NCBI GenBank assembly: GCA_016650315.1
Contig: JAENVZ010000017.1
Location: forward strand, 1 to 8,805
Direction: 5' to 3'
DNA length: 8,805 nt
DNA from: Alphaproteobacteria bacterium
Lineage (GTDB): Bacteria; Pseudomonadota; Alphaproteobacteria; Sphingomonadales; Sphingomonadaceae
In this document: piece after piece, positions 1 through 8,706 of the stretch
How positions within the stretch are numbered: the stretch's first letter is position 1
Layout of the letters: every line of letters begins with the position of its first letter
Notes under the pieces: model-generated
Seen by the model: the letters and a program-made list of their open reading frames with translations, nothing else
Databases searched by the model: none
Told to the model about the DNA's origin: nothing
Position numbers and translations under genes: made by a program

Positions 1-1018
1 CGGTCGTATTGGCGTCCGAGCCGCCAACACCAGTCAGCACATTGCCGTCGGCCGTCAGCGGACCATCCTCGGTCACGCTGTCGACATCATTCACCGCCAC
101 AGGCACATCGTCGACGACGGAAACGGTCAGTGTCGCTGTTGCCACGTCACCATCGCTATCCGTGATGGTGACGGCAAATACGTCAGGCTGGCCTGCCCCA
201 ATGACATTGTCGGTCAGCGTGTAGCTATACCCCACCTCACCATTGGCGATGGATGTGATGGTAAGCACACCCTGGGTCGTTACAATGGTCTGACCCACAG
301 CGGTAACCGCAACGCCATTTATGGCCAGAACGGCGGGCAAATCAGTCGCGGAATAGACAATCGTGCCGGTCGTCGTTTCAGAATTGGCCGCCGCGTTGGA
401 CCCCGCAGGTTCTCCCGCGCGCGCAGGCAAGCCCGCTTCATCAACCGAATCAGTTACATCGGTCGCGCCAGCGGGGAAATCATCGGTGACGATAACGATG
501 GTCGGTTCACTATCTTCTTCAACCGCTACTGGAAAGATTTCACGCTGTTCTGGCGTCGAAAAGGCCAGTTCCGTCGGCGGCAGAAGGTCGCCAAGGTTGA
601 ATGGGTCGCCAATGGCGCCTTCGGCGGCGGCAAAGTTGCCGCCTGAACTTTGTGGGGAGCCTGCCGCAGGCTGGGGCTCAGCGCCGATCAGGAGCGCCGC
701 GATATTGGCTGGCGGGATTTCAATGCCACCGACAACCAATTCCGGGACGAATACCGCGCCATCAACGATCACCAATTTGGTTCCGTCCGGCAAGGTGACG
801 ACCAAATCCCGTCCAGACACCCGAATTTCATCCAGGTTCACGCCTTCGGGCAAAATGACTGGTCCGGCGAGGGCGGAAACAACCTGCGCATTTGGATGTT
901 GGGATGCGGGATTCTGACCTGGCTGTGCGACGGCCATTCCCTTAATGTCGTTCGTCGCAGCATAATTTAACGACTGCCCGGCATCGGTGTCGTTGCTGAC
1001 TGTGCGCTCAATATCCAT
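1..1018 (-). CDS. Large type I-secreted adhesin, N-terminal 339 residues (3' end outside window)
   Basis: The reading frame is open from ATG at 1018 to the window edge. Residues 1-50 are polar and show no signal peptide, as expected for type I secretion. Residues 54-110 form a compact beta-rich module (VILPEGVNLDEIRVSGRDLV, then a TLPDGTKLVIVDG stretch) of the kind that precedes repeats in large sphingomonad adhesins. Residues 114-165 are a Pro/Gly/Ala-rich linker containing PAAG at 117-120. From about residue 165 a first repeat begins: acidic SVDEAGLP at 191-198, YSYTLTD at 264-270, the DSDGD calcium-binding-type loop at 287-291, and VVDDVPVAVND at 301-311. A second repeat starts with SVTEDGPLTADGNVLTG. 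This pattern is that of T1SS-143/VCBS/cadherin-like repeats. Such proteins are usually thousands of residues long, end in a C-terminal RTX secretion signal and act in surface attachment or biofilm. Neither the C-terminus nor the transporter genes are in view, so secretion by a type I system is inferred. Confidence 0.85.
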   Translation of the reverse strand, partial: MDIERTVSNDTDAGQSLNYAATNDIKGMAVAQPGQNPASQHPNAQVVSALAGPVILPEGVNLDEIRVSGRDLVVTLPDGTKLVIVDGAVFVPELVVGGIEIPPANIAALLIGAEPQPAAGSPQSSGGNFAAAEGAIGDPFNLGDLLPPTELAFSTPEQREIFPVAVEEDSEPTIVIVTDDFPAGATDVTDSVDEAGLPARAGEPAGSNAAANSETTTGTIVYSATDLPAVLAINGVAVTAVGQTIVTTQGVLTITSIANGEVGYSYTLTDNVIGAGQPDVFAVTITDSDGDVATATLTVSVVDDVPVAVNDVDSVTEDGPLTADGNVLTGVGGSDANTT

Positions 1019-1022
1019 TTTC

Positions 1023-1030
1023 CCACCTTC
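1023..1030 (-). promoter_or_regulatory. Ribosome binding site of the adhesin gene
   Basis: On the minus strand GAAGGTGG lies 7 bases (from the AAGG core) before ATG at 1018. This supports that start, although the same frame stays open upstream to about 1182. Confidence 0.6.
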
Positions 1031-1175
1031 ATATTTCCCGAAAGCGGCAAACACGGATGGGCAAGAACCAACGACAATCACTACAACCACTACAATATAA
1101 GCGCTGTTTGTGCTGGTCGGCGCGAAGATGGGTAAAGTCCCCTCCTTCGTTTCCTTTACTCTATCCGGTTGCAAT

Positions 1176-1586: not shown

Positions 1587-1895
1587 TTACGCGGCGATTT
1601 GGGCAACCATGCGTTCACGCAACGCTTCAAGCGAAATATCGGCCAAGGCCGCCTGCATATCTGTTGCGCGCAACACATGCGCCAGGCACGCCTGACGCTG
1701 CGCGAGTTCATCCAGTCCCTGCAAAGTGGGCAAATAGGCCTGCACCAGATTGGGGTCACGGCACAACGCAACGCCTAGTTGCTCCAGACATTGCCGCGAT
1801 GCTTCCAGTTCGCTGGCAATAGCCCGCAGCACAGCCAGATTATCGGAGGCGATGGAGGTCGCCGCAGAGGTTTCGGAGTTATCGTCCACGATCAA
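1587..1895 (-). CDS. Small helical protein ending the che operon; candidate CheT-like CheY phosphatase
   Basis: This encodes 102 residues, cytoplasmic, with no signal peptide or membrane segment. The start is probably TTG at 1895, whose TTGA overlaps the TGA stop of the preceding cheB by 3 bases; a GTG two codons in (1889) is an alternative. Residues 1-18 are polar (Ser/Asp/Thr), and the rest looks almost wholly alpha-helical, in three or four amphipathic segments (about 19-46, 49-58, 59-78, 80-101). Helix 59-78 carries D62-E-L-A-Q66, the D-x-x-x-Q spacing used by CheZ phosphatase (D143/Q147 in E. coli). S. meliloti CheT, encoded last in its che operon, is similarly short and has the same motif with little other similarity to CheZ. 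I recognise no family from overall sequence, so a phosphatase role for the neighbouring CheY is an inference from motif, size and position. It is otherwise a hypothetical chemotaxis-associated protein. Confidence 0.7.
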   Translation of the reverse strand: MIVDDNSETSAATSIASDNLAVLRAIASELEASRQCLEQLGVALCRDPNLVQAYLPTLQGLDELAQRQACLAHVLRATDMQAALADISLEALRERMVAQIAA

Positions 1896-2941
1896 GCCGC
1901 CTTGGCAAACTTGCCAGCTACTCCCAAAGTAGCGGCAGCCAGACCATTGAGCGGCAGTTGCTGCTCGACCGCACCTTGTGCCACGGCGGCGGAGGGGGCT
2001 TCATAAACCATGCAACTGTCCTTGTTCTGGCAGAAGGTCTTGCCGCCTGCCCCGCGCAAGGCCTTTAGGCCCGCCGCACCATCGCGACCCATGCCGGTCA
2101 GGATCATGCCGATACCATTGGCACCCGCAGTCTTTGCGATGGTTGCAAACAACAAGTCAGCCGAAGGGCGGAACCCCTGCACCGGATCATTGCCGAGCAG
2201 GCGGATCGACGCATCGGGCCAGCGGTCGATCACCGCATGTTTGTCGGGATCGGCAACGATATAGACCGTGCCCTGTTCCAGTTTCAGACCATCGGCGGCG
2301 ACCACCACTTTCGGCTTGATCGCCGCATCCAGCTTAGCCGTAAACGGTTCAGCGAAACCGGCTTCCATCTGCTGCAACACAATGGTTGGCGGACAATTGA
2401 CCGGGAAGGCGGCGAGCAGTTCAGACACAGCTTCCACGCCGCCGGTCGATGCGCTCATGGCGATAAGCTTGCCATTCCATTCGAACGGGATTTCGGAAAG
2501 ATCGCCAGCGCCTGCCGCCGCCTTCACGCTCCTGGATCGCACCTTGCCGTTGGCCGCAGCGATCACCAGCTTGCCAAGCTTGTCGACAATCTTGTCGAAT
2601 TCCGCAGGCGTTGCCTGCTGAGGCTTGGGAAAGCAGTCCACAGCGCCCAATTCAAGCGCCTTGAACGACGTCTGGGCTCCCTTTTGTGTCAGGGTCGAGA
2701 GCATCACCACAGGCATGGGATTGCTCTCCATCAGTTCTTCGAGAAACTCCAGGCCGCTCTTGCCGGGCATTTCGACATCCAGTGTCAATACATCGGGTTT
2801 CAGCGCCGCAATCATGTCGCGCGCTTCATCAGCGTTGGCGGCGGCGCCTACCACGCTGATCCCGCTCGACCGTTCCAGCACATCGGTAAAAAGCGCGCGC
2901 ATGGTTATGGAATCATCGACGACCAGAACCCTTGTACTCAT
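1892..2941 (-). CDS. cheB: Second CheB-type response regulator, catalytic histidine replaced by glutamine
   Basis: 349 residues with normal CheB architecture. The receiver (1-125) has D9/D10, phospho-acceptor D55, T83 and K106. A short linker of about 30 residues leads to the CheB effector (about 157-345). CheB normally removes methyl groups from, and deamidates, MCP glutamates using a Ser-His-Asp triad. Here the serine is present (S165 in SASTGG) and the aspartate is present (D287 in TGMGRDG). The conserved QH at the histidine position reads Q190-Q191, encoded CAG CAG at 2369-2374. The usual PGG-H loop (intact in the other CheB at 221-225) is also altered to DPDKH at 231-235. The domain is otherwise full length and well conserved. 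It may lack esterase activity and act as a phosphate sink, a CheA- or receptor-binding regulator, or an enzyme with altered chemistry. The ATG is preceded by AAGGGAAG at 2953-2946. It follows cheW by 32 bases. Confidence 0.92.
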   Translation of the reverse strand: MSTRVLVVDDSITMRALFTDVLERSSGISVVGAAANADEARDMIAALKPDVLTLDVEMPGKSGLEFLEELMESNPMPVVMLSTLTQKGAQTSFKALELGAVDCFPKPQQATPAEFDKIVDKLGKLVIAAANGKVRSRSVKAAAGAGDLSEIPFEWNGKLIAMSASTGGVEAVSELLAAFPVNCPPTIVLQQMEAGFAEPFTAKLDAAIKPKVVVAADGLKLEQGTVYIVADPDKHAVIDRWPDASIRLLGNDPVQGFRPSADLLFATIAKTAGANGIGMILTGMGRDGAAGLKALRGAGGKTFCQNKDSCMVYEAPSAAVAQGAVEQQLPLNGLAAATLGVAGKFAKAA

Positions 2942-2973: not shown

Positions 2974-3423
2974 TCAGGCGGCTTCGGCCGTAATCAGATT
3001 ACGGGTCTCTGCGGCAAGCTGATCCAGCGACAGAACCATCACCATGCGATCCTCGACCGCGACCAGGCCTTTGAGGAACAGCGAGGCACTATCGACATTC
3101 AGATTTGGCGGGGCCTGCATCGCGTCATCATCGACGGTGACAATGTCGTTGACGGCATCGACGATCAGGCCATGGAGCTGTTCGGCGATGCGGACAACGA
3201 TGATGACATGACGTCCCGTCGGCTCCGTCAGTCCCCAGCCAAGGCGAGCGGCAAGATCAATGACCGGCAGTACATTGCCGCGCAGGTTGATGACGCCGCG
3301 CACATATTCGGGAACATGCGGCAAAAGCGTGGAAGGCGACCATGCGCGAATTTCACGAATGGCCATAATATCGACGCCCAGAAACTGCTCGCCGATCTGG
3401 AAGGTGATAAGTTGGCTGGGCAT
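2974..3423 (-). CDS. cheW: Chemotaxis coupling protein CheW
   Basis: 149 residues, one CheW domain spanning nearly the whole protein, the usual length for the family. The beta-barrel landmarks are in order: ITFQIGEQFLGVDI at 6-19, the REI(R) strand at 23-26, and VINLRGNVLPVIDL at 44-57 containing the conserved Arg (R48) used in receptor and CheA binding. A second subdomain starts around HVIIVV near residue 72 and has LIVDAVNDIV near residues 86-95. CheW links MCP tips to the CheA P5 domain in the signalling array at the membrane. A ribosome site AAGGA (3436-3432) lies 8 bases before the ATG. The gene sits 32 bases after cheY and 32 bases before the second cheB, within the operon. Confidence 0.96.
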   Translation of the reverse strand: MPSQLITFQIGEQFLGVDIMAIREIRAWSPSTLLPHVPEYVRGVINLRGNVLPVIDLAARLGWGLTEPTGRHVIIVVRIAEQLHGLIVDAVNDIVTVDDDAMQAPPNLNVDSASLFLKGLVAVEDRMVMVLSLDQLAAETRNLITAEAA

Positions 3424-3455: not shown

Positions 3456-3827
3456 TCAATGACAAACCCGGCGAACGGCGGCGGCCAGTTTGACCGGGTC
3501 GAATGGCTTGACGATCCAGCCGGTCGCGCCAGCCGCACGTGCGCGGGCCTTTTTCTCTTCCGAACTTTCCGTCGACAGGACCAGGATCGGGCGATCCCGA
3601 TGACGCCCATCCGCCCGTAGCGCGTCGATCAGGCCAAAACCGTCCATGCGCGGCATGTTGATGTCGGTGATGATCATGTCAGGCGTATTGACCTTCAGCC
3701 AATCGAGCGCGGCAATGCCATCCTCGGCCTCGGCCACATCATAGCCATGTTCAGTAAGCGCGATGCGCAGCAGCATTCTCATGCTGGGGCTGTCATCGAC
3801 CGTCAATATCTTGGTTACGGCAGTCAT
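3456..3827 (-). CDS. cheY: Chemotaxis response regulator CheY
   Basis: 123 residues, a single receiver domain with no output domain. The acidic pair is D11/D12, the phospho-acceptor D55 (in ITDINMP), the switch Thr T86 and the conserved Lys K107 (in VKPF). The position of E. coli Tyr106 is Trp (W104). It receives phosphate from CheA and would normally bind the flagellar motor switch; a phosphate-sink role is also possible and cannot be told apart here. I chose ATG at 3827 because GGAG lies 6 bases before it and the receiver begins normally. A TTG at 3839 would overlap that ribosome site. The gene begins 15 bases after the cheD stop. No cheZ is present; the small protein at the operon end may supply dephosphorylation. 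Confidence 0.95.
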   Translation of the reverse strand: MTAVTKILTVDDSPSMRMLLRIALTEHGYDVAEAEDGIAALDWLKVNTPDMIITDINMPRMDGFGLIDALRADGRHRDRPILVLSTESSEEKKARARAAGATGWIVKPFDPVKLAAAVRRVCH

Positions 3828-3842: not shown

Positions 3843-4412
3843 TCAGAATAGTTCGACGTCGCCCATGGACGCCGCTGGGGTTGGGGTGGTTTTAATTTCG
3901 ACAGGAAGCTGATCTGTCAGCACGCGGCAGCGCGCCTGACCTTTCACGGCGCGGAAATCGACGCGTCGCGCCGCATTCCCGCCCAGATTACTGAACGTGA
4001 GCGAAATGCCGTCACGAGCGAGGAAGTCGATGGCGAAGCGCGCATTCGCCGACCCGATTTCCTGCATCCCGACATGCATGTTCGCGCCGCCATAGAGATG
4101 CGCCCTCATCCGTCTGCGCACTGCGCCCGCCTTCAGCATCTCGTTGATCAGCAATTCCATGGCATAAGTGCCATAGCGTTCCGACTGCGCGCCGAAAGAC
4201 AAGTCGCCTTCGCGCGGTTCGGACAGCAGGAAATGGTTCATGCCGCCGACCCCGGCAATGCCGTCGAACAGACAGGCGGCCACGCAACTGCCCAGCACCG
4301 TCGTCAAAACCACAGCAGAATCCAATGTCACTTTGGTCGTGCCCTGGATTACGTTGATGCGTTTTTCCGGCAACAAGGTCGTCCTATTGTCCACCGGGGT
4401 CATGAATGACAT
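3843..4412 (-). CDS. cheD: Chemoreceptor glutamine deamidase CheD
   Basis: 189 residues. CheD converts specific receptor glutamines to glutamates and so tunes MCP signalling. The catalytic set is visible: T37, C43 in VLGSCVAACLFD, and H60 in GGMNHFLLS. Downstream are RYGTYAMELLINEM (near 79-92), the LYGGANM motif (near 106-112), and the C-terminal GDVELF tail typical of alphaproteobacterial CheD. Length is normal; the C-terminal linker before the tail is Thr/Pro-rich. The start is ambiguous. ATG at 4412 has GGAAGG about 11 bases upstream and overlaps the preceding cheB by 13 bases. ATG at 4403 would give a 4-base ATGA overlap like the upstream gene pairs. I prefer 4412 for its ribosome site. 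There is no CheC partner in the window. Confidence 0.95.
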   Translation of the reverse strand: MSFMTPVDNRTTLLPEKRINVIQGTTKVTLDSAVVLTTVLGSCVAACLFDGIAGVGGMNHFLLSEPREGDLSFGAQSERYGTYAMELLINEMLKAGAVRRRMRAHLYGGANMHVGMQEIGSANARFAIDFLARDGISLTFSNLGGNAARRVDFRAVKGQARCRVLTDQLPVEIKTTPTPAASMGDVELF

Positions 4413-5404
4413 TGTTCGATGACCCTTCCGGCCAGTCCGTCAAGGGACACGACATGGCTGGCCGCGCCCAGTTCCACGGCGGCGCGCGGCATTCCATAGA
4501 CAACGCAACTGTCCTTATCTTGTGCAAAGGTCACCGCGCCTACATCGCGCATTTCCAACAGGCCTCGCGCACCGTCACTGCCCATGCCGGTCAATATCGC
4601 GCCGACAGCCCGGCGACCCGCAACCCGTGCGACCGAAGCGAAAAGCATATCCACGCTCGGTTTATGGCCACAGACCGGGTCAACATCGCTCAGGCGGCAA
4701 TAAGGCCGCTGCGTCGAATGGATCGTGAGGTGACTACCCCCCGGCGCCACATAGACATGGCCTATTTCCAAAGGCTGGTCATGCGCGGCCAGACCGACGC
4801 TGGCCGCGCAATGTGTGTCCAGCCGTGCCGCCAACGCGCCGGAAAAGCTTGCCCCGATATGCTGGACAATCAATGTCGGCGGACAATTGGCAGGCCAGCT
4901 TTTGAGCAACTGGATCAGCGCCTCGACGCCGCCGGTCGATGATCCGATGGCGATGATATTGCCATTGGGCCGAAATTCGGCGCTGGAACGGACGACAGGC
5001 TGACGCGCTGCCAATCGGCGTATGCTGCTGCGCGCGGCATGACGGACGATGTTCGCCAGTTCATTGTCGTTGAACGGTCCCTGCGGCTTGGCATAACAAT
5101 CGACCGCGCCCAGTTCGAGCGCACGCATCGTCGTCTCCGCACCCTTGTAGGTCAATCCCGACACGACGACGACTGGGGTTGGTCGCAGGGTCATGATCTT
5201 TTCCAGGAAATCGAGGCCGCTCATGCCGGGCATTTCAATGTCCAGCGTGATGACATCGGGGTCCAGTTCCTTGATGAGCCGCCGCCCCTCCTGCGCATTG
5301 CTGGCGGCGCCCACGACTTCAATCCCGGGATCGCGCGACAGGCTGGCGCTCAACAGCGCGCGCATGGTGGGGGAGTCATCAACGACAAGGGCCCGGACAG
5401 TCAT
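4400..5404 (-). CDS. cheB: Chemotaxis methylesterase/deamidase CheB, intact triad
   Basis: 334 residues. The receiver (1-120) has D9/D10, phospho-acceptor D55 (TLDIEMPG), S82 and K106. A linker of about 25 residues leads to the CheB effector (about 148-330). The triad is complete: S156 in GSSTGG, H182 in VQHIG, and D277 in TGMGSDG; the PGG-H loop is at 221-225. When phosphorylated by CheA it hydrolyses receptor methyl esters and so resets the MCPs. The ATG at 5404 overlaps the cheR stop as ATGA. The frame is open further upstream to 5446, but that extension precedes the normal receiver start and lies inside cheR, so I reject it. A second cheB four genes later is paralogous: both share short identical nucleotide blocks around the Ser and His motifs. 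Confidence 0.96.
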   Translation of the reverse strand: MTVRALVVDDSPTMRALLSASLSRDPGIEVVGAASNAQEGRRLIKELDPDVITLDIEMPGMSGLDFLEKIMTLRPTPVVVVSGLTYKGAETTMRALELGAVDCYAKPQGPFNDNELANIVRHAARSSIRRLAARQPVVRSSAEFRPNGNIIAIGSSTGGVEALIQLLKSWPANCPPTLIVQHIGASFSGALAARLDTHCAASVGLAAHDQPLEIGHVYVAPGGSHLTIHSTQRPYCRLSDVDPVCGHKPSVDMLFASVARVAGRRAVGAILTGMGSDGARGLLEMRDVGAVTFAQDKDSCVVYGMPRAAVELGAASHVVSLDGLAGRVIEQCHS

Positions 5405-6273
5405 GCGCCATGCTTTCTGTAAATGGTGGGACCGACAGGATCGCAATGCCGCACAGCGGGACCGACCAGCCGCTCACTATGGCCGATATACAGATAGCCG
5501 CCGGGCTGGAGCTTCGCACACAGGCGATCCAGCAGCTTTTTCTTGGTCGGTTCATCGAAATAGATCATGACATTCCGGCAAAAAATAACGTCGAACATGC
5601 CTGTTAACGGCCAGTTGCCGAGCAGGTTTAGCTGGCGGAAGCGGACGAGGTCCCGCACCGCGTCGGATATGACGATATTGACGCCTTCGGCCCTCGCCCA
5701 GTTCTGCTTCAACCGGGCGGGCATTTCCGCCGTACCGATGGAGGGATAGGTTGCAGCGCGGCCGGTTTCGAGGACATGATCGGCAAGGTCGGTTGCCAAC
5801 AGGGCAATGTCGCTGCCCGCAATGCGCCGACCGCTGGCCTGTTCTTCGCCAAGCAGGGTCATGCCCAGCGAATAGACCTCCTCCCCGCTCGAACAGCCTG
5901 CCGACCACATACGGACGCGGCCACCGCCAAGCGCCCGCCTGACCATCTGGAGCCGCACATCGCGCGCGAAATGTTCGAAATGATGGTTCTCACGAAAAAA
6001 TTTCGTATGATTGGTGGTCAGAGCACTGATCGCGCGCCGCCGTTCTTGAGGATCTGAATTCAATATGCCGATATATTCGGCAAAGGTCGCAACCGCCCGT
6101 TCACGCAAATATTTGGTGAGGCGCGAATAGATGAGCATGGCCTTGCCCTCTGGCATGACAATGCCCGCATCGGCATAGACCAGCGCCGAAAGCGCCTGAA
6201 AATCGTCCCGGTGATAGGCAAAGTCATGGACGACGTCGAACGGGCTGTTCGTGGCGACCGCGAGCGCGCTCAT
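5401..6273 (-). CDS. cheR: Chemoreceptor methyltransferase CheR
   Basis: 290 residues, the usual CheR length. It transfers methyl groups from S-adenosylmethionine to receptor glutamates. An N-terminal helical domain (about 20-95) ends in NHTKFFR at 88-94. The methyltransferase domain carries the SAM loop SAGCSSGEE at 124-132, LLATDLADHVL at 158-168, FDVIFCRNVMIYFD at 227-240, and YIGHSERL at 262-269. The beta-subdomain that binds receptor tails falls around 185-215. The DWTKF tail of the upstream MCP is a plausible docking site for it. ATG at 6273 overlaps the cheA stop as ATGA, and the cheR stop overlaps the cheB start the same way, so translation is probably coupled. Confidence 0.96.
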   Translation of the reverse strand: MSALAVATNSPFDVVHDFAYHRDDFQALSALVYADAGIVMPEGKAMLIYSRLTKYLRERAVATFAEYIGILNSDPQERRRAISALTTNHTKFFRENHHFEHFARDVRLQMVRRALGGGRVRMWSAGCSSGEEVYSLGMTLLGEEQASGRRIAGSDIALLATDLADHVLETGRAATYPSIGTAEMPARLKQNWARAEGVNIVISDAVRDLVRFRQLNLLGNWPLTGMFDVIFCRNVMIYFDEPTKKKLLDRLCAKLQPGGYLYIGHSERLVGPAVRHCDPVGPTIYRKHGA

Positions 6274-8405
6274 GCCGCTTCGGCCATACGAGAACGGCCC
6301 AGTTCGGACGCAACCACCGATTCAACGTCCAAGATCAACGCAACCCGGCCATCGCCCAATATGGTCGCGCCAGCGACCCCGTCGATCTGCTGGAAATTCG
6401 TCTCAAGGCTCTTGATCACCACCTGTCGCTGATCCTTGATCGTATCGACCATCAGCACCGAATGGCCGGCCGTTTCGGACTCCACGACGATCAGCACCGC
6501 CTGCGTCGGGTCGGTTTCACTGCCCTCGATCCCCAGTCTGCGACCGACATGCTGAACCGGCAGGAATTGCCCGCGAACGTTCAGCATGAACTTGCCGCCG
6601 CCAAGCTGCCGCACTTCCTGTGGTCCGGGTCGCAGGCTTTCGACGATATGGGTCAGCGGCACGACGAGCGTCTGGTCACCCACGCCGACGATCATCCCAT
6701 CGGCAATGGCCAGTGTCAGCGGCAAAGCAAGCGTGAAGGTGCTGCCATGGCCGGGACGTGAGGAAATGCTGATCCGGCCGCCCAATGCCTGCACATTTTG
6801 CCGCACCACATCCATCCCGACGCCGCGGCCCGATATGTTCGACACAGTTTGCGCGGTCGAAAAACCCGGCGCGAAGATCAGATTGTCGATCTCTTCATCC
6901 GAAAGTTGAGCGTCCGCACCGATCAGGCCACGTTCGATGGCCTTGGCCAGAACGCGCTCGCGGTTGATGCCCCGTCCGTCGTCTGACACACAGATAAGTA
7001 TCCGCCCTCCACGATGTTCGGCGCTAAGCCGCACCACGCCTTCAGGCGATTTGCCCGCAGCAGTGCGATCCTCGGGCGTTTCAAGACCATGATCGATCGC
7101 GTTGCGGATAAGGTGGGTCAGCGGTTCGCCAATGCGCTCCACGACGGTCTTGTCGAGTTCGGTGCCCTCCCCTTCCACATCCAGCCGGACCCGCTTGCCA
7201 GTTTCGGTTTCCAGCTCGCGCACGATACGCGGCACCCGGCTGAAGACCGAACGGATCGGCTGCGCGCGGATCGACATGGCGCAATCCTGCAGCTCCCGCG
7301 TCAGATGGTCGAGATCGGCAACCTCGGCAATCTGGGATACGCCCATCACCGATAACTGTTGGGCAAGCATGGCCTGCGTGATGACCAGTTCGCCCACCGT
7401 ATTCACCAACCGATCAAGCTTTTCCAGATCGACCCGGATGGTCTGTCCAGCCTTGACTGAAGCCTGACCCGCCTGGGGTGCAACAGGTGCGGCGTCCTTG
7501 GGTTCCGGCTTGACTTCGACCTTTACAGCAACCGGTATCAGTGCCTGAGGAGCGTCCGTGACTGCCTCATGTTTAGCAGCAGGCACAACGGTGGCATCGG
7601 CCATTTTGATGACCGGCTCGGCATCAACCTCGTCAATGACGACCTTGCATTCCGAACCCAGGAAATCGAATATATCGGCGATGTTGGCACGTTCGACGCT
7701 GACAGGCAGGCGATATTGCCATTCCAGATAGGCGGCCTCTGCGTCGAAGACATCCAGATCCGGCACTTCGTCGACATGCGCATGAACACAGCGCGCCCCA
7801 AGATCGACCAGCGCCCGCAGCAGCAGCAGCGGCTCACTGCCATTGGTGAGCGCGCCCGCCATGGGCCGCACCGTCACCAGCCACTCTTTCGCGCCGCTTG
7901 TTTCGTCGCTGCTCTCCGCTTCGGGCTGGTCGAGCGAACTGAGCAAGCCCTCCAGGTCAAAATCCAGCCCTGTAATCTCCGGCATCACTGGTTCAGGTGT
8001 TCCCGGTTCAGTTGGGGTAGCTCCGGCCGCGCTTTCTGCAACTTCTTCCAGCAGACGGCTCATTTCGGCATCGTTCGGTGTATCGCAGTCACCTTTGATG
8101 GTGCTGACATGATCGGTCAGAATATCAAAGGCACGGAACAATGTCGCCAGCAGCGCATCTGTCAACGGCTTGTCGCCATCGCGCACTTGGGCGAGCACCG
8201 TTTCAAACTTGTGTGTATATTGTTGCAGCGCGGTAAAACCGAATGCCCCTGCTCCGCCCTTGATCGAATGGACCGCCCGGAAAATGCTGTTGATCGCTTC
8301 GCTGTCTTGCGCATTGGACTGGCAATCGATCAGGCCGGTTTCGGCGCTGGCAAGACCTTCGTCGCATTCCTGCAGGAAAATGATCTGGATGTCGTCCTGG
8401 TTCAT
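6270..8405 (-). CDS. cheA: Chemotaxis sensor histidine kinase CheA
   Basis: 711 residues, a full-length CheA. P1 (1-110) carries the phospho-histidine H46 in VHSIKGGAGAFGF. A P2-type response-regulator docking domain spans about 174-258 (EWLVTVRPMAG to KVVIDE), between low-complexity Glu/Pro/Ala linkers (125-170, 262-318). P3 dimerisation begins at TIRVDLEKLDRLVNTVGELV (322-341). P4 kinase has the N box HLIRNAIDHG (431-440), the G1 box SDDGRG (474-479), the FAPGFST lid region (511-517) and the G2 box GRGVGMD (526-532). P5, the CheW-like domain, covers about 565-700. It autophosphorylates in response to MCPs and phosphorylates CheY and the CheBs. ATG at 8405 is chosen because P1 starts there and AAAAGGGG (8423-8416) precedes it, overlapping the STAS-gene stop. 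The frame is open to 8483, but that part is antisense-like Cys/Pro/Arg sequence inside the STAS gene. Confidence 0.97.
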   Translation of the reverse strand: MNQDDIQIIFLQECDEGLASAETGLIDCQSNAQDSEAINSIFRAVHSIKGGAGAFGFTALQQYTHKFETVLAQVRDGDKPLTDALLATLFRAFDILTDHVSTIKGDCDTPNDAEMSRLLEEVAESAAGATPTEPGTPEPVMPEITGLDFDLEGLLSSLDQPEAESSDETSGAKEWLVTVRPMAGALTNGSEPLLLLRALVDLGARCVHAHVDEVPDLDVFDAEAAYLEWQYRLPVSVERANIADIFDFLGSECKVVIDEVDAEPVIKMADATVVPAAKHEAVTDAPQALIPVAVKVEVKPEPKDAAPVAPQAGQASVKAGQTIRVDLEKLDRLVNTVGELVITQAMLAQQLSVMGVSQIAEVADLDHLTRELQDCAMSIRAQPIRSVFSRVPRIVRELETETGKRVRLDVEGEGTELDKTVVERIGEPLTHLIRNAIDHGLETPEDRTAAGKSPEGVVRLSAEHRGGRILICVSDDGRGINRERVLAKAIERGLIGADAQLSDEEIDNLIFAPGFSTAQTVSNISGRGVGMDVVRQNVQALGGRISISSRPGHGSTFTLALPLTLAIADGMIVGVGDQTLVVPLTHIVESLRPGPQEVRQLGGGKFMLNVRGQFLPVQHVGRRLGIEGSETDPTQAVLIVVESETAGHSVLMVDTIKDQRQVVIKSLETNFQQIDGVAGATILGDGRVALILDVESVVASELGRSRMAEAA

Positions 8406-8421: not shown

Positions 8422-8706
8422 TTAAAGCGCCTGTGCGGCCGGGCCGGGCAAAAGGCGGTGCAACCCGGCAATGCGCAGTGCATTTTCGAATGGCTCGCTT
8501 CTGTCCTGGACCATGAATGAAAGGTCGCGTTTCTCAGCGGTCAGCGCCGCGCTTACCAGCAATTGCAGGCCGCATTGGCCGATCTGACGCACATTCCCCG
8601 CCGCGACCGCAACTTCTGTACCCGCGCCCATCGCATCGGAAAGCTCAGTAGCCAGTTCAATCGCCGCCGTGCGATCGACGACCGGGGGAAGGTTGATGAT
8701 TTTCAT
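8422..8706 (-). CDS. STAS-domain protein of the chemotaxis operon
   Basis: 94 residues forming a single STAS (anti-anti-sigma-like) fold: two N-terminal strands, a helix (about 12-26), the strand VAVAAGNVRQI (32-42), then GQCGLQLLVSAALTA leading into the second helix. In SpoIIAA-type proteins this loop reads D-S-S-G with a phosphorylated Ser just before Gly; here that residue is Cys45 (I42-G-Q-C-G46), so partner switching by classical phosphorylation is unlikely. The protein has no signal peptide. Stand-alone STAS proteins often open alphaproteobacterial che operons, but I know of no established function for them. The ATG at 8706 has AAGG 10 bases upstream. It precedes cheA by 16 bases and shares its ribosome site region with its own stop codon. 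Confidence 0.85.
   Translation of the reverse strand: MKIINLPPVVDRTAAIELATELSDAMGAGTEVAVAAGNVRQIGQCGLQLLVSAALTAEKRDLSFMVQDRSEPFENALRIAGLHRLLPGPAAQAL

What the first reader, a model, noticed from the sequence alone, without database searches (positions are those of the whole stretch)
2369..2371. Second CheB has lost its catalytic histidine (Gln191)
Aligned to the intact CheB in the same operon (PPTLIVQHIG), this protein reads PPTIVLQQME, with CAG at the codon for the catalytic His. Ser165 and Asp287 remain, and the receiver (D10, D55, K106) is intact. The PGG-H substrate loop is also changed. Established knowledge says the His is needed for methylesterase activity. The rest of the domain is well conserved, so it is probably under selection for a non-esterase role such as phosphate sink, competitive receptor binder or regulator of the active CheB.
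Basis: partly seen in the sequence, partly recalled or inferred. Interest (0 to 1): 0.75.

Follow-up and report, generated by a model that had tools for sequence, protein, structure and literature searches.

The report
Dead CheB replacing a second CheY
In sphingomonad bacteria a second copy of the chemotaxis enzyme CheB has lost its catalytic residues in nearly every copy examined while keeping its phosphorylation site, and in the operons that could be read it occurs only where the usual second CheY is missing, so it likely works as a phosphate-accepting signalling protein and not as an enzyme.

Summary
Window 1892-2941 (-) encodes a 349-aa CheB paralogue (CheB2) with CAG (Gln191) where solved CheBs have the catalytic His; Ser165, Asp287 and the receiver's acidic pair, Asp55 and Lys106 remain. 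It is not strain-specific. All 59 CheB2 rows of a 126-row tree lack an intact Ser-His-Asp triad; the other 67 rows, including CheB1 of the same operons, keep it. One metagenome homologue outside that tree (P0035) has all three residues. His became Gln, Arg, Pro or Asn in most genera; Ser became Asp or Glu in one Sphingomonas group. Over 69 loci with both CheBs, the CheB2 receiver is on average more conserved than CheB1's and its esterase domain much less. CheB2 tracks operon type: 73 of 79 CheB2 operons hold exactly one CheY (four of the rest are cut, one cheB2 is displaced, one is a miscall); 23 of 24 operons without CheB2 hold two. The CheY2-like regulator was not found elsewhere in 16 CheB2 genomes. 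Most likely CheB2 is a non-catalytic response regulator in the second-regulator slot, acting as phosphate sink or competitor; that step is inferred. The papers searched listed no description.

The parts
1892..2941 (-). cheB2: receiver plus degenerate CheB methylesterase domain, 349 aa
   Evidence: PF00072, PF01339; AlphaFold2 mean pLDDT 90.5; nearest 6ymz/1a2o, TM about 0.88
2369..2371 (-). codon CAG, Gln191, where catalytic His is expected
2447..2449 (-). Ser165 codon (nucleophile position, kept here)
   Evidence: S in 59 of 81 CheB2, D 11, G 6, E 5
2081..2083 (-). Asp287 codon (third triad position, kept)
   Evidence: D in 81 of 81
2612..2941 (-). receiver domain, residues 1-110, with D9, D10, D55, S82, K106
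   Evidence: all five 81 of 81; on average more conserved than CheB1's receiver
1964..2473 (-). degenerate esterase domain, residues 157-326
   Evidence: 16 of 169 columns at least 97% conserved against 49 of 169 in CheB1 (columns 157-325)
4400..5404 (-). cheB1, intact triad
   Evidence: 69 of 69 CheB1, window included, keep S, H, D
3456..3827 (-). cheY, the only CheY of this operon (Trp at the Tyr106-like site)
1587..1895 (-). X102: 102-aa helical protein, no Pfam hit, invariant LQxxDxxxQ; TTG start overlaps the cheB2 stop
2974..3423 (-). cheW
3843..4412 (-). cheD
5401..6273 (-). cheR
6270..8405 (-). cheA (Hpt, dimerisation, ATPase, CheW-like); start codon chosen by eye
8422..8706 (-). STAS-domain protein before cheA; a single-domain STAS protein, CheS, is known from rhizobial che clusters (its place there is recalled)
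   Evidence: PMC12654446 passages

Best explanation
CheB2 is a CheB paralogue without a complete catalytic triad but with an intact, strongly conserved receiver, and it likely serves as the second response regulator of a one-kinase circuit, where it would take phosphoryl groups from CheA and so limit or shape phosphorylation of CheY and CheB1. Shown by sequence: the triad is broken in the CheB2 clade, the receiver residues are invariant, an intact CheB1 is present alongside in most loci, and CheB2 occurs in operons that lack the CheY2-like second CheY. Inferred: that CheA phosphorylates D55, that methylesterase activity is absent, and that the function is that of a phosphate sink or competitor, with the dead esterase domain kept as scaffold or lid and perhaps for docking at the array. 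CheB2 probably arose by duplication of the operon's own CheB inside the Sphingomonadaceae.
For: Triad: 0 of 59 CheB2 rows intact against 67 of 67 other rows (two divergent third CheBs, L019 and L020, are among the 67 and attach beside the clade on a branch of 2.87). Careful tree without them: CheB2 39 rows, support 100/100, none intact, other 47 all intact. Receiver residues D9, D10, D55, S82, K106 in 81 of 81. Same-genome contrast over 69 loci (68 named and the window): receiver distance CheB2 0.317 against CheB1 0.349, esterase 0.524 against 0.385; resampled differences exclude zero. Columns lost in CheB2 include those next to the triad: Salmonella G162, S164, T165, G166, G167, E169, Q189, H190, T281, G282, M283. 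Purifying selection in 21 close pairs. Operon swap: with CheB2, one CheY in 73 of 79; without, two in 23 of 24 (exceptions in the Full report section). The second CheY (nearest solved chain named CheY2, 1p6q) is found in 6 of 6 CheB2-less genomes (query's own, and 76-86% identity in five) and at no more than 39% identity in 15 of 16 CheB2 genomes, with no match at E 1e-12 in the last. The retained CheY differs between operon types at about 11 of 123 columns, two of them (88, 106) at sites recalled as FliM contacts in E. coli CheY, which suits the retained CheY having become the motor regulator. In Sphingomonas SRS2 and Y57 cheY-cheB2-X102 stand together while only a distant CheA (39-42%) and no operon-type CheB1 were found. 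Precedent: one kinase, two regulators, one a sink, in S. meliloti (PMC4214558, passages).
Against: No phosphotransfer or esterase assay exists. P0035, a metagenome CheB2-like protein, has Ser, His and Asp, though Val for Thr166 and Leu for Gln190. The receiver contrast is an average: CheB2's receiver is the closer one in 1447 of 2278 locus pairs, equal in 117 and the more distant in 714. The swap of CheY2-like for CheB2 may be one or few evolutionary events, so operon counts are not independent. It is confounded with motor type: canonical FliM with the CheY-binding-like peptide occurs in 8 of 8 CheB2-less genomes and 0 of 14 CheB2 genomes, so CheY2 may have gone with its motor and CheB2 need not be its substitute. 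The lost CheY resembles the motor-binding CheY2 of S. meliloti, not its sink CheY1. Purifying selection on the dead domain, similar to CheB1's at short range (0.01-0.22), suggests it does more than a bare sink needs.
Confidence: 0.48

Rival explanations
1. CheB2 is a non-catalytic receptor-array protein: when phosphorylated it binds methylation sites or CheB1/CheD and shields or competes, tuning adaptation.
For: The esterase fold is kept with high model confidence and matches CheB and is under purifying selection in close pairs; the gene sits in or beside the operon with cheR, cheB1, cheD in most loci.
Against: The neighbourhood of the active site changed most (27 of the 34 columns lost are in the esterase domain), only 16 of 169 esterase columns are at least 97% conserved, and in two genomes cheB2 stays with cheY and X102 away from adaptation genes.
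Confidence: 0.2
2. CheB2 became an output regulator: its phosphorylated receiver acts on the divergent flagellar switch, replacing the CheY2-FliM output.
For: CheB2 genomes lack both the CheY2-like regulator (16 genomes) and any FliM found with the FDQAxIDALFG-like peptide (0 of 14 genomes; 0 of 13 divergent FliMs against 8 of 8 canonical).
Against: The retained CheY changed at two recalled FliM-contact sites, as if it had taken over the motor itself; on this re-reading I lowered these odds from 0.17. Divergent FliM also occurs in 5 of 8 CheB2-less genomes examined. No motor-binding CheB is known to me.
Confidence: 0.15
3. CheB2 is still a methylesterase by other chemistry, e.g. another base for His191.
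For: Ser165 and Asp287 are kept here; His235 is invariant; one homologue has the full triad.
Against: His235 is also invariant in CheB1 (69 of 69), so it is not a replacement; Ser165 itself is lost in 22 of 81; Thr166, Gln190, Gly283, Met284 vary.
Confidence: 0.05
4. CheB2 is a decaying relic with no function.
For: The esterase domain drifts and the triad is lost in several ways.
Against: dN/dS well below 1 for both domains in all 21 close pairs, receiver on average more conserved than CheB1's, gene kept in or beside the operon over several genera.
Confidence: 0.04

Closest known systems
CheB receptor methylesterase (PF01339 / NCBIfam NF001965; 1a2o, 6ymz)
   Same: Receiver plus esterase fold, domain order and length; scores above NCBIfam's CheB cut-off (321.8 against 293).
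   Different: Catalytic triad incomplete; active-site columns variable; coexists with an intact CheB1.
Phosphate-sink response regulator, CheY1 of Sinorhizobium meliloti (PMC4214558, passages)
   Same: Second receiver beside one CheA in a one-kinase, two-regulator system that also has a STAS protein and a DXXXQ protein (PMC12654446, passages); no effector activity expected.
   Different: A two-domain CheB, not a single-domain CheY. Kinetics unmeasured. The CheY lost here resembles CheY2, not CheY1.
Rhodobacter sphaeroides CheB2 (PMC2924250, passages)
   Same: A CheB modelled as a phosphoryl carrier between kinases.
   Different: That CheB2 is described there as a working methylesterase; the shared name is coincidental.
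CheT/CheZ-type DXXXQ phosphatases (PMC12654446, passages) for the neighbour X102
   Same: Next to cheD in CheB2-less operons (that rhizobial cheT follows cheD is recalled), helical, invariant DxxxQ.
   Different: No sequence family hit; fold comparison inconclusive.

Membership tests
CheB methylesterase (active enzyme) | Receiver followed by CheB esterase domain | tested here: met
CheB methylesterase (active enzyme) | Complete Ser-His-Asp triad | tested here: not met
   Q191; 0 of 59 clade rows intact; one homologue not in that tree, P0035, has it
CheB methylesterase (active enzyme) | Demethylation or deamidation of receptors | not testable with these tools
   needs an assay
Phosphate-sink response regulator | Phosphorylatable receiver | tested here: met
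   residues D9, D10, D55, S82, K106 in 81 of 81; phosphorylation itself not shown
Phosphate-sink response regulator | Shares one CheA with an output CheY in the operon | tested here: met
   window operon; one CheY in 73 of 79 CheB2 operons; that this CheY is the output is inferred
Phosphate-sink response regulator | Accepts phosphoryl groups from CheA and drains CheY-P | not testable with these tools
   needs phosphotransfer kinetics
CheZ/CheT-type phosphatase (X102) | DxxxQ helix motif | tested here: met
   D62 and Q66 in 50 of 50
CheZ/CheT-type phosphatase (X102) | CheZ-like fold | tested here: inconclusive
   helical hairpin, only generic matches

The most novel reading that the evidence does not exclude
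A dead CheB has taken the place of the motor-type CheY in sphingomonads: CheB2-P, not CheY2-P, carries part of the output to a flagellar switch whose FliM has lost the CheY-binding peptide, making this a chemotaxis pathway with a re-wired output built from an adaptation enzyme.
Probability: 0.15. Interest if true: 0.88.

Novelty: new variant of a known kind. Interest (0 to 1): 0.62.

Why it matters
NCBI's family model names this protein as a working CheB, so models of sphingomonad chemotaxis would count two adaptation enzymes where there is probably one. If the reading holds, an adaptation enzyme was converted into a second signalling regulator in step with loss of a CheY and of the usual CheY-FliM contact, which gives a natural case for testing how phosphate sinks arise and how these soil, water and plant bacteria steer.

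Tried and rejected
A strain mutation or sequencing error: rejected, the 10 closest homologues all have Gln. Viral origin: the viral-contig scan found no relative. An orthologous dead clade outside the order: the six best-scoring CheBs outside it in a 385-genome class sample were read (L231-L233, L235-L237) and are all intact; lower-scoring ones were not read. His235 as substitute base: rejected, invariant in CheB1 too. X102 as a partner of CheB2 alone: rejected, it also occurs in CheB2-less operons. X102 as CheZ by fold: inconclusive; no CheZ chain was among the rows listed. X102 outside the order: of the 189 other genomes in a class sample 3 matched, one of them well. A relic gene: disfavoured by dN/dS. 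Limits: several dS values exceed 1, domain bounds in loci other than the window are approximate, and the CheB1 values of pair L113/L109 are unusable because CheB1 of L109 is split over two frames. Counts (107 of 396 genomes at E 1e-60) mix CheB1 and CheB2 and were not used as a CheB2 census. Literature: ten searches listed no paper whose title or printed abstract start describes a catalytically dead CheB; several listings were capped, only listings and passages of five papers were read, and subscription journals are mostly not held. Of 115 sources, 12 had no core che gene and were not counted. In one search, 68 of 2346 locus pairs were dropped for too few shared columns.

Full report
What is there. 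The window is a chemotaxis operon on the minus strand of a Rhizorhapis-like genome (closest named homologue of CheB2 95% identical, Rhizorhapis sp. SPR117): STAS, CheA, CheR, CheB1, CheD, CheY, CheW, CheB2, X102. CheB2 is window 1892-2941. Codon 191, at 2369-2371, is CAG. Against Salmonella CheB it aligns over residues 2-335 and Gln191 faces His190. Ser165, Asp287 and the receiver residues are in place. The predicted structure is a normal CheB (mean pLDDT 90.5; nearest solved chains 6ymz and 1a2o at TM about 0.88). NCBIfam scores it above its CheB cut-off (321.8 against 293).

It is a clade, not a mutation. Of the 120 homologues listed, column 191 is Gln in 98, Arg in 14, Pro in 7 and His in one, P0035, which also has Ser and Asp; its eight nearest homologues in that list (80-86% identical) have no His there. 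In 80 named genome loci plus the window, CheB2 has Ser165 in 59 of 81, otherwise Asp 11, Gly 6, Glu 5, and column 191 is His in 16 of 81; those 16 are the ones with Asp or Glu for Ser. Asp287 and His235 are in 81 of 81. CheB1 has Ser, His and Asp in 69 of 69. Over all loci then held, 228 distinct CheB sequences including the Salmonella reference, 108 had an intact triad and 120 did not. In a tree of 126 representatives with the triad columns left out, all 59 non-intact rows form the CheB2 clade and all other 67 rows are intact; two divergent third CheBs (L019, L020) sit beside the clade on a branch of length 2.87. Without those two, a careful tree of 86 rows gives CheB2 (39 rows) support 100/100, again with no intact member, and 47 of 47 others intact. 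The Ser-lost Sphingomonas group and the His-lost groups suggest that the site was broken in more than one way; the order of losses is not resolved, because the fork that places the Sphingomonas group is only moderately supported (81/95). CheB2 nests with the sphingomonad operon CheBs (99/95), so duplication within the family is likely.

Which part is under constraint. In 69 loci with both CheBs (68 named and the window), mean pairwise distance is 0.349 (receiver) and 0.385 (esterase) for CheB1, and 0.317 and 0.524 for CheB2, over 2278 locus pairs. Drawing 40 loci at random 1000 times gave differences of 0.033 (0.016-0.054) and 0.138 (0.118-0.156). Pair by pair, the CheB2 receiver is the closer one in 1447, equal in 117 and the more distant in 714; the CheB2 esterase domain is the more distant in 2193. 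Columns at least 97% conserved: receiver 35 of 109 (CheB1) and 42 of 109 (CheB2); esterase 49 of 169 and 16 of 169; of 34 columns lost in CheB2, 27 are in the esterase domain, many beside the triad residues. In the 21 close pairs, dN/dS of the CheB2 esterase part was 0.02-0.26 (CheB1 0.01-0.22), so the dead domain is still constrained. This suits a protein whose receiver does the work and whose esterase domain is kept for its fold or for docking.

What it travels with. In CheB2 operons there is one CheY; in related operons without CheB2 there are two. Counts: with CheB2, exactly one CheY in 73 of 79; none in five, of which L076, L091, L269 and L270 are cut before cheY and L068 has cheB2 apart from the main operon; two in L109, where the second hit is CheB1's own receiver (63% identical to CheB1). 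Without CheB2, two in 23 of 24; L252 is a cut contig. These 24 are 16 of the same family, 6 of other families of the order and 2 from outside the order. In 18 of them the second CheY lies between cheB and cheD and is of one type ('CheYb'); in the 6 of other families it lies behind cheB and is less like CheYb. CheYb is closest to the solved CheY2 chain 1p6q (that this chain is from S. meliloti is recalled) and has Tyr at the 106-like position in 18 of 18; rows labelled CheY, mostly the retained one, have Trp in 99 of 107. CheYb is present in 6 of 6 CheB2-less genomes (the query's own, five at 76-86% identity) and in none of 16 CheB2 genomes (best match 39% identity or less). X102, with invariant LQxxDxxxQ, is in both operon types. 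An intact CheB1 lies in the same fetched piece in 68 of 80 named loci. Of the other 12, 11 were searched genome-wide: 8 have an operon-type intact CheB1 on another contig and 3 (Sphingomonas SRS2 and Y57 and one MAG) showed none; the twelfth, L061, shares its genome with L080, which has one. In SRS2 and Y57 cheY, cheB2 and X102 stand together and only a distant CheA (39-42% identity) was found.

The motor differs too. Canonical FliM with an N-terminal FDQAxIDALFG-like peptide was found in 8 of 8 CheB2-less genomes. The 14 CheB2 genomes had only divergent FliM (8) or none at E 1e-10 (6), and none of 13 divergent FliMs has the peptide; 5 of the 8 CheB2-less genomes carry a divergent FliM as well. 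FlhA was found in 13 of 14 CheB2 genomes, and in one genome that groups with Novosphingobium fliD lies next to cheB2, so these are probably still flagellar systems. That the peptide is the CheY-binding site is recalled from E. coli FliM. The retained CheY differs between the two operon types at about 11 of 123 columns (23 rows against 76); two, 88 and 106, match sites recalled as FliM contacts in E. coli CheY.

Reading. The most economical account is a one-kinase, two-regulator circuit in which CheB2 fills the second slot and the retained CheY speaks to the motor. S. meliloti shows that such a second regulator can act as a sink that speeds signal termination and sharpens the response (PMC4214558, passages); S. 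meliloti and A. fabrum also have CheS, a STAS protein, and CheT, a DXXXQ protein (PMC12654446, passages). Against a simple swap stands the fact that the lost CheY resembles the motor-binding CheY2, not the sink CheY1, and that the motor changed at the same time. Hence two live rivals: an array or receptor binder, and an output regulator for the divergent motor.

Not shown: phosphorylation, lack of esterase activity, any binding partner, and the number of independent swaps.

Noticed in passing
window 1587-1895 (-): Unnamed 102-aa helical protein with invariant LQxxDxxxQ, a candidate small CheZ/CheT-like phosphatase at the operon end; found in 71 of 80 loci, the other 9 pieces lacking the operon's 3' end.
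   Followed up: partly
L297-L317 (FliM loci): Two FliM types in Sphingomonadaceae; only the canonical one carries the FDQAxIDALFG-like peptide, and the 14 CheB2 genomes examined have only the other type or none at the threshold.
   Followed up: partly
L322 11975-15051; L325 15344-18835: Two MCP genes just upstream of the operon, one with a protoglobin sensor.
   Followed up: no
window 2-1174 (-) and L323 5810-18002: Bap/LapF-like adhesin fragment next to the operon in the window; in the sister genome a 2714-aa frame, then OmpA, outer-membrane efflux and ABC transporter genes.
   Followed up: no
G000 contigs C70 and C87 (L003, L002): Two more CheB domains in the window's genome, one a divergent CheB and one in an 867-aa frame that may be a CheB-CheR fusion (not tested).
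   Followed up: no
L061 and L080 (one MAG, G050): One genome with two CheB2 genes on two contigs, both without triad, and no FlhA or FliM found at E 1e-10.
   Followed up: no
L203/L246 (G411): A genome of group g68, in which many sampled genomes carry CheB2-type matches, has the two-CheY operon instead, which may point to exchange of whole operons.
   Followed up: no
L109 4.1-10 kb: CheB1 of this Novosphingobium contig is split over two frames: a receiver frame and a separate esterase frame.
   Followed up: no
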